DNA from: Leuconostoc palmae
GTDB taxonomy: Bacteria > Bacillota > Bacilli > Lactobacillales > Lactobacillaceae
Direction: 5' to 3'
DNA length: 64,000 bases
NCBI RefSeq assembly: GCF_019656075.1
Contig: NZ_BPKZ01000006.1
Location: forward strand, 1-64,000
Made by a program: the position numbers and the translations under genes. This document shows, in pieces, positions 4,340 to 44,496 of this stretch (position 1 is the first letter of the stretch; each line of letters opens with the position of its first letter). The notes beneath the pieces are model-generated. The model ran no database searches. It was not told where the DNA came from and saw only the letters and a program-made list of their open reading frames with translations.

Positions 4340-4785
4340 TTCGTTTGAGCGGTTTTGATTAATTGCTGAACAAAATTTTTTAACATCACTACGTCCTGTT
4401 CATCAGGACGTAGATTGATTTTAACACTGTCAGCGCCTTTTATGGCATTTGTTTTGGCAAGTTGTGATTCGAATTTAGGAACAGCTAGACAAAAATCATC
4501 AACATAATAGGTATCACCTGATCCGGATACACCATAAACAACACCACTTAAATCAGTATTTTCTAGATCTTCAAAGAAGTCTAAACCTTCGTCTGGAAGA
4601 GACCCATTATCGTAGGTGTATGGAACTATAACTGCGATATCTACCTCATTTAGTTCTTCTACTTCAGTCTGAGAAATTTCAGTTTTCTTGGTATTGACAT
4701 TTGCCTCTTGTAAGGCGGTGATGATTACATCTGCAACTTCTTCATTATTTCCAGTTATTGTTGCGTAAACGACATGTGCATTCAT
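4336..4785 (-). CDS. Flavodoxin
   Basis: A 149-aa FMN electron carrier. The phosphate-binding loop YATITGNNEEVA near the N-terminus and the GVSGSGDTYY segment at about 88-97 are typical of short-chain flavodoxins. It is cytoplasmic and could deliver electrons to enzymes such as radical-SAM proteins; the partner is unknown. The gene is divergent from the aquaporin. No SD is adjacent to the ATG; the only good SD (GGAGGA) lies 66 nt upstream beyond a long stem-loop. Confidence 0.88.
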   Translation of the reverse strand: MNAHVVYATITGNNEEVADVIITALQEANVNTKKTEISQTEVEELNEVDIAVIVPYTYDNGSLPDEGLDFFEDLENTDLSGVVYGVSGSGDTYYVDDFCLAVPKFESQLAKTNAIKGADSVKINLRPDEQDVVMLKNFVQQLIKTAQTK

Positions 4786-4880
4786 AAGTTATTAATTAGC
4801 AATTATAACGTACATATAAATCAAAATAAGGCTGGTTATAATTTGCGAGATTCCTCCACAATTTAATATCCTCTATTATA
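4786..4880 (-). promoter_or_regulatory. Promoter and SD-hairpin-start leader of flavodoxin
   Basis: Minus strand: a -10 TATAAT (4880-4875), then SD GGAGGA (4857-4852), then GCAAATTATAAC (4846-4835) pairing with GTTATAATTGC (4809-4799) with one bulged A, then 13 nt to the ATG at 4785. The stem closes a 25-nt loop and removes 48 nt of the SD-ATG distance, leaving about 18 nt. The pairing is directly visible; its role is inferred. Confidence 0.55.
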
Positions 4881-6024: not shown

Positions 6025-6030
6025 TAGTTT

Positions 6031-6270
6031 AATAGCATTGATGAGGACAACTTGACTGTTTACCATATTTTAGAGATCTCATGTTTGGTGAAAATGGGAA
6101 TATTAAACAGAAAAGACTACCTTTGAGTGATAATTAGTAGACGACAACGTGTTAAAAATTATCCGGGTGACACCGTTAAAAGTCATTTGAGTTGCATTGT
6201 TATGCAAAACTTGGGTGGTACCGCGGTGAAACGTCCCTTTGAGTCATTATGATTCAAAGGGACGTTTTTG
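6031..6270 (+). promoter_or_regulatory. T-box riboswitch (threonyl) with terminator
   Basis: The conserved T-box sequence GGGTGGTACCGCG is at 6213-6225. A strong terminator follows: ACGTCCCTTTGA (6231-6242) pairs with TCAAAGGGACGT, then TTTTTG. A probable specifier codon ACC (Thr) is at 6119-6121. Uncharged tRNA-Thr should stabilise the antiterminator and allow thrS transcription. The specifier assignment is less certain than the T-box. Confidence 0.9.
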
Positions 6271-10503: not shown

Positions 10504-10647
10504 TGTTGAACAAGTAGAAGCACCCGCTTCTCGCCAAGTGATTACATTGCTTGGCAGATACAGTTATCCAAAAAGGATTGCAAGTGTTAAAGTGGGTGGA
10601 GATTAAGTTCTTTATCCACTTTTCTTCTTGATTCACAAAATAAATTT
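10504..10647 (+). promoter_or_regulatory. L20-type autoregulatory leader of infC operon
   Basis: A ~145-nt structured leader: AGAAGC/GCTTCT (10516-10531), GCCAAG/CTTGGC (10533-10555), and GTGGA (10596-10600) with TCCAC (10615-10619) followed by TTTTCTT, which looks like an attenuator. L20-binding leaders at this position are established in Firmicutes; excess L20 should promote termination. Identity is inferred from position and helices. Confidence 0.65.
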
Positions 10648-18872: not shown

Positions 18873-18914
18873 AAGGAGAATATCATTGGCATATCAATGA
18901 TATAACGAAGGATT
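18873..18914 (+). promoter_or_regulatory. SD-hairpin-start element of usp with a four-codon mini-ORF
   Basis: SD AAGGAG (18873-18878) is 36 nt from the ATG. TATCATTG (18881-18888) and CAATGATA (18895-18902) form a perfect 8-bp stem with a GCATAT loop. The hairpin also contains TTG GCA TAT CAA TGA (18886-18900), whose TTG GCA TAT copies the first codons of usp (ATG GCA TAT). A second AAGGA lies only 2 nt before the ATG, too close to be optimal. Confidence 0.6.
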
Positions 18915-19352
18915 ATGGCATATAAGAACATTTTAGTTGCAATTGATGGATCTGAAGTATCAAATGTATTAATAAAAAAAGTGCATGAATTTGCTCCAGA
19001 TGCTCATCTGGATATTTTAAACGTTGTTGATACATCTGGTGGATATTTTGGTACTATTGTCATGAATGCTGACATTATTTATCAAATGGAACAAGATGCA
19101 GAGGAAGCAATTAACAAGTCTTACGAATATGCTCTTGAAATTGGACACAATAATGTTGACGTACACGTTCGATTTGGATCTCCTAAGCAGGTGGTTGCTC
19201 GTGATTTTCCAAAAGATCACAGTAATGATTTAATTGTCGTTGGGGAGACTGGTTTGAATTCTATTCAACGTGTTATGTCAGGTACTGTTCCTTCATTTGT
19301 CACACAATCTGCAAAAACTGATGTTTTGATTATGCGAGTAGTAGAAAAATAA
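18915..19352 (+). CDS. Universal stress protein (UspA family)
   Basis: The 145-aa cytoplasmic protein begins YKNILVAIDGSEVSN. The C-terminal ATP-binding pattern (VVGETGLNSIQRVMSGTVPSFV) matches G-2X-G-9X-G(S/T), so it is probably an ATP-binding Usp. It is monocistronic, with a strong bidirectional terminator after it, and is preceded by a cre-like site and a hairpin in the initiation region. Confidence 0.9.
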   Translation: MAYKNILVAIDGSEVSNVLIKKVHEFAPDAHLDILNVVDTSGGYFGTIVMNADIIYQMEQDAEEAINKSYEYALEIGHNNVDVHVRFGSPKQVVARDFPKDHSNDLIVVGETGLNSIQRVMSGTVPSFVTQSAKTDVLIMRVVEK

Positions 19353-21332: not shown

Positions 21333-21576
21333 TGGTATAATCAAATGGTATATTCAACACTAGTAAATGTGGCGTGGCGGACAGAAAGTAAACGGTTGTG
21401 TAAGTTTACCGATCAAAACATTGAACTCGGTTGAATAATTTGGAAGTGAATTAATAGTAGTTTTCAACGTATCGTCGCGTTAAGACGTATGAGACGTATT
21501 TCGCATACGTAAACTTTAGGTGGTACCGCGATAACTCGCCCTAAATCATACTTATGTATGATTTAGGGCATTTTTT
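21333..21576 (+). promoter_or_regulatory. leuS promoter, T-box riboswitch (leucyl) and terminator
   Basis: An extended -10 TGGTATAAT (21333-21341) starts the leader. T-box AGGTGGTACCGCG is at 21518-21530. Specifier CTC (Leu) in GAACTC is at 21426-21428. The terminator pairs GCCCTAAATCATAC (21538-21551) with GTATGATTTAGGGC, then TTTTTT. Uncharged tRNA-Leu should switch leuS on. Confidence 0.92.
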
Positions 21577-21597: not shown

Positions 21598-21641
21598 AAG
21601 GGAGGATATATGGCAGCTTTCTGGCTATCATATTAATTAAT
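21598..21641 (+). promoter_or_regulatory. SD-hairpin-start element of leuS with an 8-codon ORF
   Basis: SD AAGGGAGG (21598-21605) is 36 nt from the leuS ATG. ATATGGCAGC (21608-21617) pairs with GCTATCATAT (21624-21633), with one G-T and one C-A mismatch, leaving 10 nt after folding. The same segment reads ATG GCA GCT TTC TGG CTA TCA TAT TAA (21610-21636), a mini-ORF ideally spaced from the SD and ending 5 nt before leuS. Confidence 0.6.
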
Positions 21642-24059
21642 ATGGCATACCAACATCAACAAATAGAACAAAAATGGCAAGAATTTTGGGATAAGCATCA
21701 AACATTTGAAACAACTGATGAGACATCAAAACCTAAATACTATGCTGCAGATATGTTTCCTTATCCTTCAGGGCAAGGGCTGCATGTAGGACATCCAGAA
21801 GGATATACAGCTACTGATATCATGAGTAGATATAAGCGTGCCCAAGGATTTAATGTATTACATCCAATGGGATGGGATGCATTTGGACTACCGGCTGAGC
21901 AATACGCGATGAAAACGGGACATAATCCCGCTGATTTTACTAGTGAAAATATCGATCATTTTCGTCAACAAATCAAGTCTCTTGGCTTGTCATATGATTG
22001 GAATCGTGAAATCAATACAACTGATCCGTCATATTATAAATGGACACAATGGATTTTTGAAAAATTATATGAAAATGGTCTGGCATATGAATCAAATATG
22101 ATGGTTAATTGGGATCCAATTGATCGTGTTGTATTAGCTAATGAAGAAGTTATTGATGGTAAGTCTGAACGTTCTGGAAATAAGATTGAACGTAAGGCAC
22201 TACGCCAGTGGGTTTTAAAAATTACAGCTTATGCCGATCGCCTAGTTGATGATTTAGATGATCTTGATTGGCCTGAGGCAATCAAAGAACAGCAACGCAA
22301 TTGGATTGGTCGCTCAAAAGGTGCCGCTGTATTCTTTGATGTTGATGGCACAACAACTAATGAAAAAATTGAAGTTTATACAACAAGACCTGACACATTG
22401 TTTGGTGCAACGTATATGGTCCTATCTCCAGAACATAGTTTGGTGGATAGTATTACGACATCAGAACAAAAAGAAAGCGTTGAAAACTACCGTCAAGAGA
22501 TTGCAGTTAAATCAGACCTAGAGCGTACAGATCTTAATAAGAATAAAACAGGTGTATTTACTGGAGCCTATGGTATTAATCCGATTAACGGTGAAAAGTT
22601 GCCTATTTGGATTGCTGATTATGTTCTATCATCATACGGAACAGGCGCAATTATGGCTGTTCCGGCACATGATGATCGTGATTTTGAGTTTGCCAAAAAA
22701 TTTGATTTACAGATCAAAACTGTTATTTCTGGCGGTAATGATGTTGATGTTGCATATACTGGTGATGGCATTCATATTAATTCGGGATTTTTAGATGGAT
22801 TAGATAAGACTGAAGCCATTGATAAAGTTATTGCTTGGCTTGAAGAAAAAGGGTCTGGACACGCTCAAACTAACTTTAGATTGCGTGATTGGATTTTCTC
22901 ACGTCAAAGATATTGGGGAGAACCAATCCCTGTTATTCATTGGGAAGATGGGACGACAAGTCTTGTACCAGAAAATGAACTACCATTATTACTGCCTCAT
23001 GCGACAGAGTTAAGGCCTTCAGGAAGTGGTGAGTCACCATTGGCTAATTTAACAGATTGGTTAGAAGTGACAAGAGAAGATGGTGTGAAGGGGAGACGTG
23101 AAACAAATACAATGCCACAGTGGGCTGGCTCATCATGGTATTTCTTGAGATATGTTGATCCACATAATAACCAAAAATTAGCAGACACAGACAAACTAAA
23201 ATACTGGATGAATGTAGATTTGTATGTTGGTGGTGCTGAACACGCCGTGTTACACTTATTGTATGCTCGTTTTTGGCATAAATTCTTATATGATATTGGT
23301 GTTGTACCAACAAAAGAACCATTCCAAAAATTAGTTAATCAAGGGATGATTTTAGGTGAAAATCATGAAAAAATGTCTAAATCAAAGGGAAATGTTGTTA
23401 ATCCTGATGATATTGTTAGAGATTACGGTGCTGATACATTACGTGTTTATGAAATGTTTATGGGACCTTTAACACAGAGTAAGCCATGGTCTGAAGAAGG
23501 TATTACAGGTTCACGACGTTGGTTAGATCGTGTATGGCGATTGCTAATTGATGACAATGACCAACTACGCGATCATGTTACAACATTTAATCCGCTTGAT
23601 TTAGAAAAAATTTATCATCAAACCGTGAAAAAAGTGACAGAAGATATTGAAAATTTACGTTTCAATACAGCTATTTCTCAAATGATGGTCTTTGTTAACG
23701 AATCTTATAAGTCTGCTGCATTACCATTAGAATACATGAATGGTTTTGTTCAACTATTGGCACCATTTGCACCGCATTTAGCCGAAGAACTATGGGTGAG
23801 GTTAGGCAATTCAGAATCAATATCCTACGTTACTTGGCCAAAATATGATGAGAGTAAATTAATTGATAATACAGTTGAAATCATTTTCCAAGTTAATGGT
23901 AAAGTACGTGGTAAAGCTACTGTTAGTCGTGATATTGATCAAGATGCTATGGTAGATGCTGCTAAAGCAGATGAAAATGTTCAAAATTTTATTACAGGAA
24001 AACAAATTCGTAAAGTGATTGCAATTCCTGGAAAGTTTGTTAATATTGTTGTGAGTTAA
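21642..24059 (+). CDS. leuS: Leucyl-tRNA synthetase
   Basis: Charges tRNA-Leu. The 805-aa class Ia enzyme has the HIGH motif in [13 protein letters not shown], the CP1 editing domain (about 220-420) with [13 protein letters not shown] and [13 protein letters not shown], and [10 protein letters not shown]. The C-terminus ends in FVNIVV, complete. The ATG at 21642 gives the conserved N-terminus [14 protein letters not shown]. Controlled by the T-box and possibly by the hairpin or mini-ORF. Confidence 0.97.
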
Positions 24060-29566: not shown

Positions 29567-29589
29567 AATACCAATAACTAAATCTTTTG

Positions 29590-29721
29590 TTTGCAGATAT
29601 ATCGCTGGGAAATGGCCAGCAGTTTCTACCACGCCCCATAAGTCGTGACTATCCGCAAGTGTGAAGCGATAATTGGTCGTAAAAGCATTTGTGGATCTGT
29701 CGTGTCCCAAATGCTTTTTTT
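29590..29721 (+). promoter_or_regulatory. Guanine-class purine riboswitch and terminator
   Basis: P1 TTTGCAG (29590-29596) pairs with CCGCAAG (29653-29659). P2 is GCTGG/CCAGC with loop GAAATGG, J2/3 reads AGTTTCTACC, L3 contains CCCATAA able to pair with L2, and J3/1 is ACTAT (29648-29652). The C in ACTAT is the base that selects guanine over adenine. The terminator pairs AAAAGCATTTG (29681-29691) with CAAATGCTTTTTT (29708-29720). Guanine should stop guaB expression. P3 is short and imperfect. Confidence 0.78.
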
Positions 29722-44108: not shown

Positions 44109-44496
44109 GTAAGTATCGGGTAATTGCGCGTTATAATTCTAACGTGAGGAAGGTCCATGCTCGCACAACCTGAGATGGTTGTAGTGATTGTGCTGGGATA
44201 AAAAATAAACCCAGGGGCAGTGATGTCACGGCGGTCGAAAAGGCTAAGGCTTATTAATATAGCTATGTCTAAATAGGCTCGAAGGTGCCATAGAAACGTA
44301 TACATTAGTGAAAGCTAGTGTTTGAGACGAGGTAAACCCCACAAGTGGGCAACCCAAACTTTTGGTAGGGGCGGCTAATCTAGCAAATTGAAGCGATGGT
44401 TGGTATGGTTTGCTGATGCAAACTTAGATAGATGATTACCGATGGTGTTATATACCTGAATAACACTTGAACAAAACATGGCCTACAGATACTTAC
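44109..44496 (+). ncRNA. rnpB: RNase P RNA, type B
   Basis: Catalytic RNA that trims tRNA 5' leaders. The CR-I segment GAGGAAGGTCCATGCTCGC, the GGTAAACCCC block, CCCAAACTTTTGGTAGGGG, and the CR-V region GAACAAAACATGGCCTACAG match Bacillus type B RNA. The termini GTAAGTAT (44109-44116) and ATACTTAC (44489-44496) pair to form P1, fixing the ends at about 388 nt. Confidence 0.95.

What the first reader, a model, noticed from the sequence alone, without database searches (positions are those of the whole stretch)
21598..21641. Eight-codon ORF placed between the leuS SD and the leuS start
ATG GCA GCT TTC TGG CTA TCA TAT TAA is ideally spaced from AAGGGAGG and ends 5 nt before leuS. It contains a Leu codon (CTA) and overlaps the hairpin exactly. 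It could act as a coupling leader peptide, adding translational control to the T-box. Alternatively the hairpin masks it and leuS is read directly.
Basis: partly seen in the sequence, partly recalled or inferred. Interest (0 to 1): 0.5.

Follow-up and report, generated by a model that had tools for sequence, protein, structure and literature searches.

The report
Hairpin-split ribosome site before leuS
In Leuconostoc bacteria a small RNA hairpin sits between the ribosome-docking sequence and the real start codon of leuS and of some other genes, apparently folding an over-long gap down to a usable length, so the 'mini-gene' that was noticed is most likely only the outer edge of that hairpin.

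Summary
The mini-ORF (21610-21636), its SD (21598-21605) and a hairpin (21608-21633) are really there. The genus is Leuconostoc, named through relatives' plasmids. In 13 of 13 species of the window's leuS clade, leuS has GGAGG, 1-3 nt, a hairpin, 7-11 nt, ATG, although hairpin sequence and spacer length (36-74 nt) vary widely. The mini-ORF is not conserved: 2-16 codons, stop 1-42 nt before leuS, or fused in frame to leuS (2 species). The SD is therefore most likely leuS's own and the hairpin bridges the gap, as described for phage T4 genes 38 and 25. The same layout occurs on other genes: 34 of 59 long-spaced genes with ortholog-supported starts in partial samples of four Leuconostoc genomes, against 2.2 expected from shuffles. 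Some orthologs keep a hairpin of different sequence; others lack it and have ordinary spacing (gltX). None of 38 leuS of other family genera, nor of 65 leuS of diverse bacteria, shows it. A start-like NTG at the stem base is over-represented, so a two-state start switch is not excluded. There are no expression data.

The parts
21339..21546 (+). T-box leader of leuS (specifier region reads GAACUC, i.e. CUC = Leu; the specifier reading is recalled anatomy)
   Evidence: Rfam T-box RF00230 92.6 bits, E 3.7e-21, against a gathering score of 93
21538..21576 (+). Intrinsic terminator of the T-box (stem 21538-21569, T run 21571-21576)
   Evidence: sequence; the stem matches itself on the other strand, 94%
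21598..21605 (+). Strong Shine-Dalgarno sequence AAGGGAGG, assigned to leuS
   Evidence: GGAGG upstream of the hairpin in 13 of 13 clade-A species
21608..21633 (+). Bridging hairpin between the SD and the leuS start
   Evidence: MFE and centroid fold in context; z -2.6, p 0.017 for the spacer alone; a hairpin in the same position in 13 of 13 clade-A species
21610..21636 (+). Mini-[11 protein letters not shown]-stop: not conserved as an ORF; its ATG is paired in the lower stem
21642..24059 (+). leuS, leucyl-tRNA synthetase, 805 aa
   Evidence: start agrees with relatives
18873..18917 (+). Second instance in the window: SD AAGGAG 18873-18878, hairpin 18880-18903, uspA ATG 18915-18917
   Evidence: the ortholog in L. 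lactis (G012) has a hairpin of different sequence at the same place. Against: a short AAGG lies 3 nt before this ATG

Best explanation
leuS is started from its own strong SD across a folded spacer. The 30S subunit pairs with AAGGGAGG; the hairpin that follows stays folded and brings the leuS AUG, 36 nt away in sequence, to an effective distance of about 10 nt. The mini-ORF start codon is held in the lower stem and is mostly unused. The same 'hairpin-split' initiation site is used by a minority of genes in Leuconostoc. Shown (by sequence comparison): position, conservation, excess over shuffles in genome samples, conservation of pairing without conservation of sequence, hairpin-less orthologs with ordinary spacing. 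Inferred: that the hairpin is folded on the ribosome and that leuS, not the mini-ORF, is the main product. A plausible but untested reason for its persistence is a ratchet: once a hairpin sits in the gap, drift may change every base but must keep the pairing, until a clean deletion restores normal spacing. Extra regulation is not required by the data.
For: 13 of 13 clade-A leuS: f (SD to hairpin) 1-3 nt, l (hairpin to ATG) 7-11 nt, f+l 8-13 although the total spacer is 36-74 nt; spacer folding p<0.02 against 1000 shuffles each in 12 of 13; the hairpin is also in the 105-nt context fold of each of the 13. No SD-like tetramer near any of these ATGs. Genome samples with ortholog-supported starts: 34 of 59 long-spaced genes have the geometry, 2.2 expected (G012 18/30 vs 1.23; G005 4/7 vs 0.27; G000 8/13 vs 0.37; G010 4/9 vs 0.34); by N-terminus these are 24 different genes (list). 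With no geometry imposed, the fold ends 6-13 nt before the ATG in 32 of 35 clade-A single-domain spacers, most often 10. Of 21 ortholog pairs printed for hairpin genes, 11 have a hairpin in bridging position in both with different sequence (one weak, dG -6.7), 3 have ordinary spacing in the partner, 4 have no strong SD in the partner, 3 are unclear (my reading). gltX: hairpin in 9 of 13 clade A; the other 4 clade A and all 6 clade B lack it and have SD-ATG spacing of 10-12 nt.
Against: No expression, probing or profiling data. Effective distances (median 12, range 8-17 genome-wide) are longer than ordinary GGAGG-ATG spacing (median 8, 5-95% 4-10). In the window the SD is itself paired with an upstream U-rich stretch in the longer fold, and that 116-nt region as a whole folds no better than shuffles (z 0.05). 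leuS of G001 is weak (p 0.089). The 34 genes are not independent: leuS itself is in twice and several genes recur between samples. With starts not supported by orthologs the excess is small in G005 (4 vs 2.1) and G010 (4 vs 2.1), clear in G012 (36 vs 9.7) and G000 (10 vs 1.9). In 4 of 21 ortholog pairs the partner has no strong SD at all within 150 nt. The start-like NTG at the stem base (13 of 13 leuS within 9 nt, 12 of 13 within 7 nt) is not needed by a purely structural spacer.
Confidence: 0.82

Rival explanations
1. Two-state start switch: with the hairpin closed the SD serves leuS; with it open the 30S takes the NTG at the stem base and makes a short or abortive product, so anything that opens the hairpin (heat, helicase, a fast first ribosome) lowers leuS.
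For: ATG/GTG/TTG within 9 nt of the SD in 13 of 13 leuS, with A-T, G-C and T-A pairs at its first base; genome-wide in the first 7 nt in 20 of 34 against 11.1 expected; of trinucleotides NTG in the first 7 nt, ATG 18, GTG 11, TTG 3, CTG 2 among 47 spacers, two leuS counted twice.
Against: 14 of 34 genome-wide hairpins have no such NTG in the first 7 nt; per-species shuffle probability of an NTG is 0.18-0.56 and the 13 leuS are related; NTG frames are sometimes fused to the main gene (2 of 20; 2 of 13 leuS, one of them the same gene).
Confidence: 0.12
2. Leader peptide / translational coupling: the mini-ORF is translated and ribosomes reinitiate at leuS, with Leu codons sensing charging.
For: SD, start, stop and a 5-nt gap in this window; an engineered bicistronic leader has been used in L. 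citreum (PMC5995908, title and abstract start seen in search listings).
Against: Stop-to-leuS distance 1-42 nt, length 2-16 codons, in-frame fusion in G012 and G007, no Leu codon after the start in 5 of 13; the same layout on genes not obviously tied to leucine.
Confidence: 0.05
3. The hairpin is an operator for a protein such as LeuRS itself.
For: Position within the initiation region of a synthetase gene; ThrRS-type autoregulation is a known kind (recalled).
Against: No shared loop or stem sequence seen across the 13 species (by eye) and the same layout on other genes.
Confidence: 0.02
4. Chance or mutational by-product (palindromes arising by template switching) without function.
For: Local repeats: ATATGGCA at 21608 and 21640; G006 and G008 loops resemble their own leuS starts (by eye).
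Against: Position relative to SD and ATG is fixed while sequence is free; 34 observed against 2.2 expected; hairpins kept through large sequence change.
Confidence: 0.04

Closest known systems
Phage T4 genes 38 and 25 split / 'accommodated' translation initiation regions (Nivinskas 1999; Malys and Nivinskas 2009, both known to me only through passages of the review PMC3014915)
   Same: Over-long SD-AUG distance (22 and 27 nt) shortened to 5 and 11 nt by a structure between SD and AUG; for gene 25 kept in close T-even phages, absent in more distant ones (passages).
   Different: Here in bacterial chromosomes, on 24 different genes in partial samples, spacers of 28-99 nt (scan limited to 25-110), sequence unconstrained, presence variable between orthologs; function not tested.
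E. coli thrS split ribosome binding site (described in PMC3936740)
   Same: The ribosome is said to accommodate a long hairpin without unfolding it (passage).
   Different: As I recall, there the hairpin lies upstream of the SD and is an operator for ThrRS; here it lies between SD and start and no shared binding sequence was seen.
T-box leaders of synthetase genes
   Same: leuS in the window has a T-box with terminator upstream.
   Different: The bridging hairpin lies downstream of the terminator and also occurs on genes for which a T-box was not tested; I take it as a separate layer.
uORF / leader-peptide coupled genes
   Same: A short ORF with a good SD ends just before the main gene in this genome.
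   Different: ORF length, frame, stop and codons are not conserved.

Membership tests
T4-type split initiation region (structure between SD and AUG) | Strong SD too far from the start codon, no nearer SD | tested here: met
   36-74 nt in 13 of 13; none has AGGA/GGAG/GAGG in the last 19 nt
T4-type split initiation region (structure between SD and AUG) | Hairpin reduces the distance to a functional one | tested here: met
   f+l 8-13 nt by prediction; T4 values 5 and 11
T4-type split initiation region (structure between SD and AUG) | Structure conserved in close relatives | tested here: met
T4-type split initiation region (structure between SD and AUG) | Destabilising the hairpin lowers translation; probing shows it folded | not testable with these tools
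   needs reporters and DMS/SHAPE
Regulatory leader peptide / coupled uORF | ORF conserved in length, frame and stop position | tested here: not met
   2-16 codons in 11, fused in 2 of 13; stop 1-42 nt from leuS
Regulatory leader peptide / coupled uORF | Codons of the sensed amino acid conserved | tested here: not met
   Leu codon after the start in 8 of 13 only
Regulatory leader peptide / coupled uORF | Start codon conserved after the SD | tested here: inconclusive
   NTG within 7 nt in 12 of 13 leuS, 20 of 34 genome-wide vs 11.1
T-box leader (upstream of this feature) | Rfam covariance model at curated score | tested here: inconclusive
   92.6 bits against 93; full-length match, E 3.7e-21

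The most novel reading that the evidence does not exclude
Leuconostoc has a genus-wide class of two-state initiation sites: one SD shared by a decoy start at the hairpin base and the true start beyond it, with the folding state of the hairpin (temperature, helicases, first-ribosome timing) choosing between a short abortive product and the enzyme.
Probability: 0.12. Interest if true: 0.85.

Novelty: new variant of a known kind. Interest (0 to 1): 0.66.

Why it matters
Gene finders and ribosome-site models usually expect an SD close to the start; here a genus seems to bridge 28-99 nt by folding on a few percent of the genes sampled, with hairpin-less orthologs as natural controls. That makes the T4 question (can the ribosome use an SD across a folded spacer, and how exact must the distance be?) testable on many natural variants. 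It also warns that a 'uORF' next to a strong SD can be stem sequence, and that starts of such genes may be mis-annotated.

Tried and rejected
Leader peptide / Leu attenuation: rejected on non-conservation. LeuRS operator: no shared loop seen. N-terminally extended LeuRS: the start agrees with relatives, and the frame from the NTG is fused to leuS in only 2 of 13. Mobile repeat: by eye the hairpins share no sequence; no formal clustering was run. A formal covariation count on the leuS hairpins was not made: MAFFT (11 of the 13 sequences) does not align the arms of short and long forms in register, so I used independent folds against shuffles instead. Of its 80 leuS loci 65 could be examined (15 dropped by the script: no start codon near the match, or too close to the contig end): 50 with an SD nearby, 0 with the layout. 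Outgroup genome samples were small: G115 180 kb (0 of 2 long-spaced genes; 1 of 16 vs 1.1 expected), E. coli 50 kb 0 of 3, L. salivarius pMP118 50 kb 0 of 2. One search was a loose first scan; some of its 70 raw hits in G012 look like coding sequence, and they are not used as counts. The first strict scan gave G012 28 (6.6 expected), G005 4 (0.9), G000 7 (1.1), G010 4 (2.3), G115 0 (0.9); a helix-only scan gave 14 (1.6), 2 (0.4), 5 (0.7), 2 (0.4), 0 (0.1).

Full report
What is there. The sequence holds AAGGGAGG at 21598-21605, an eight-codon frame plus stop at 21610-21636, and leuS starting at 21642. leuS encodes an 805-aa leucyl-tRNA synthetase. Upstream lie a T-box leader (92.6 bits against a gathering score of 93) and its terminator. 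A hairpin spans 21608-21633 and appears in both the MFE and the centroid structure in context. In this genome alone the evidence is modest: p 0.017 for the spacer, and the 116-nt stretch as a whole folds no better than shuffles (z 0.05); there the SD is also partly paired to an upstream U-rich stretch.

Which organism. So the window is from Leuconostoc, species not named here.

Conservation at leuS. All 19 held genomes of the genus have leuS. They fall in two groups by identity to the window's protein over its first 300 residues: 13 with 83-100% (clade A, the window included) and 6 with 71-74% (clade B). 'Clade' is by identity; no tree was built. In 13 of 13 clade-A species a GGAGG lies 36-74 nt before leuS and is followed by 1-3 nt, a hairpin, 7-11 nt and the ATG; the hairpin is also in the 105-nt context fold of each. 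Against 1000 dinucleotide shuffles each, 12 of 13 spacers have p<0.02 (z -2.6 to -8.6); G001 is weak (z -1.5, p 0.089). Close species share hairpin sequence, more distant ones do not. Clade B (6 of 6) has an ordinary-spaced SD and no such hairpin. I read the 70-75 nt before leuS of 38 genomes from 20 other genera of the family (a part of the 301 genomes searched: the best matches plus one or a few per genus); none shows the layout (by eye). Nor do the 65 of 80 leuS loci of diverse bacteria that could be examined.

The mini-ORF is not what is conserved. Reading from the first ATG/GTG/TTG after the SD, the frame has 2, 4, 4, 8, 8, 11, 14, 14, 14, 15 or 16 codons in 11 species and is fused in frame to leuS in 2 (G012, G007). 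Its stop lies 1-42 nt before leuS. A Leu codon after the start is missing in 5 of 13. The distance from hairpin to leuS ATG, by contrast, stays at 7-11 nt. This argues that the SD belongs to leuS and that the fold is what is selected.

It is not only leuS. I scanned 1.2 Mb of L. lactis (G012), 400 kb of G005, 272 kb of the window's own genome (window included), 400 kb of clade-B G010 and 180 kb of another genus (G115). Using only genes whose start codon is supported by an ortholog in another sample, I took those with no SD tetramer within 19 nt and a strong SD 25-110 nt upstream. The bridging geometry (single domain, dG at most -7.5, 0-5 nt from the SD, 6-13 nt to the ATG) was found in 18 of 30 (G012), 4 of 7 (G005), 8 of 13 (G000) and 4 of 9 (G010), together 34 of 59 against 2.2 expected from shuffles; that is 2.8% of the 1221 starts examined in these four. 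By N-terminus they are 24 different genes, leuS among them. With no geometry imposed, 35 of 50 clade-A spacers form one domain, and in 32 of the 35 it ends 6-13 nt before the ATG, most often 10. With a looser, annotation-free protocol the result is 36 vs 9.7 expected (G012), 10 vs 1.9 (G000), 4 vs 2.1 (G005), 4 vs 2.1 (G010); controls 1 vs 1.1 (G115), 0 vs 0.1 (E. coli, 50 kb), 0 vs 0.1 (L. salivarius plasmid, 50 kb). The outgroup samples are small, so absence from other genera is shown for the leuS genes examined, not for whole genomes.

Orthologs as natural experiments. Of 21 ortholog pairs printed for hairpin genes, 11 have a hairpin in bridging position in both partners with different sequence (dUTPase, purR, uspA, budA, Asp23-like, rbsK and others; one is weak at dG -6.7); in 3 the partner has ordinary spacing, in 4 the partner has no strong SD, and 3 are unclear (my reading). 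Gene names other than leuS and uspA (Pfam) are my recall from N-termini. At gltX, 9 of 13 clade-A species have the hairpin, while G001, G004, G005, G006 and all 6 clade-B species lack it and have the SD 10-12 nt from the ATG. At the Asp23-like gene 12 of 19 have a structured spacer after a strong SD within 100 nt, clade B included (6 of 6); 7 of 19 show no GGAG within 100 nt. Hairpin-less gltX thus has ordinary spacing to the same start codon, as expected if the ribosome passes over the hairpin where there is one.

Distances. Ordinary genes with GGAGG within 22 nt in these samples have a median of 8 nt to the start (5-95% 4-10, n 90). With the hairpin removed on paper, leuS has 8-13 and the genome-wide set a median of 12 (8-17). 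The 3-4 nt excess may reflect the width of the stem base; this is inference.

What remains odd. The base of the hairpin often reads as a start codon: within 9 nt of the SD in 13 of 13 leuS, with first base A, G or T and its partner changing along (A-T, G-C, T-A), and in the first 7 nt in 20 of 34 genome-wide against 11.1 expected; CTG is rare (2, against ATG 18, GTG 11, TTG 3, among 47 spacers of which two leuS are counted twice). A purely structural spacer does not need this. It may be a relic of an older start, a preference for such a stem base, or a working decoy. I keep the decoy switch as the boldest reading.

Known relatives. A review (PMC3014915, passages seen) describes T4 genes 38 and 25, where a structure between SD and AUG shortens 22 to 5 and 27 to 11 nt, destabilising mutations reduce initiation, and the gene 25 arrangement is found in close T-even phages but not in more distant relatives. 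PMC3936740 (passage seen) describes E. coli thrS as a split site whose hairpin the ribosome accommodates. In the passages seen of a motif-pair survey (PMC5217627) the motif named for L. mesenteroides is one inside ABC transporter genes; its supplements were not seen. PMC1805508 (passages seen) considered split sites for 58 E. coli genes and reports no convincing one. My searches of the held open-access library listed no paper that I recognised as describing this in Leuconostoc. Four of these listings were capped (20 of 24, 31, 249 and 45 papers), subscription papers and preprints are not held, and beyond the papers named I judged by titles and abstract starts.

Verdict. An ordinary-looking uORF turns out to be the edge of a hairpin-split initiation site, a known but rare kind, here apparently spread over a set of genes of one genus. 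Bridging is well supported by comparison and untested by experiment.

Noticed in passing
window 18873-18917 (+): A second hairpin-split SD, before uspA (Usp domain); ortholog hairpin of different sequence in L. lactis. A short AAGG 3 nt before the ATG is a possible competitor.
   Followed up: yes
window 4783-4857 (-): Possible weaker third case before a gene beginning MNAHVVYATITGNNEEVADV: GGAGG then a hairpin ending about 13 nt before the ATG; the similar gene in G012 (MQAHVVYATITGNNE) is in the counted set.
   Followed up: partly
window 21608-21615 and 21640-21647: The 8-mer ATATGGCA around the mini-ORF start is repeated exactly around the leuS start, 32 nt apart; loops of G006 and G008 also resemble their own leuS starts, including a base shared by both copies in G008 (by eye). 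May hint at how the insert arose.
   Followed up: partly
leuS of clade B (L016-L021): LeuRS of clade-B Leuconostoc is only 71-74% identical to the window's over the first 300 aa, while some other genera reach 75-76%: possible replacement of leuS or fast divergence.
   Followed up: no
Asp23-like gene of G004, G005, G006, G008, G009, G015, G017 (L317, L315, L316, L314, L311, L312, L310): No GGAG within 100 nt of the start; possibly still longer spacers.
   Followed up: no
window 6029-6241, 10506-10633, 29575-29671, 44112-44490 (+): Another T-box, an L20 leader, a purine riboswitch and RNase P class B RNA.
   Followed up: no
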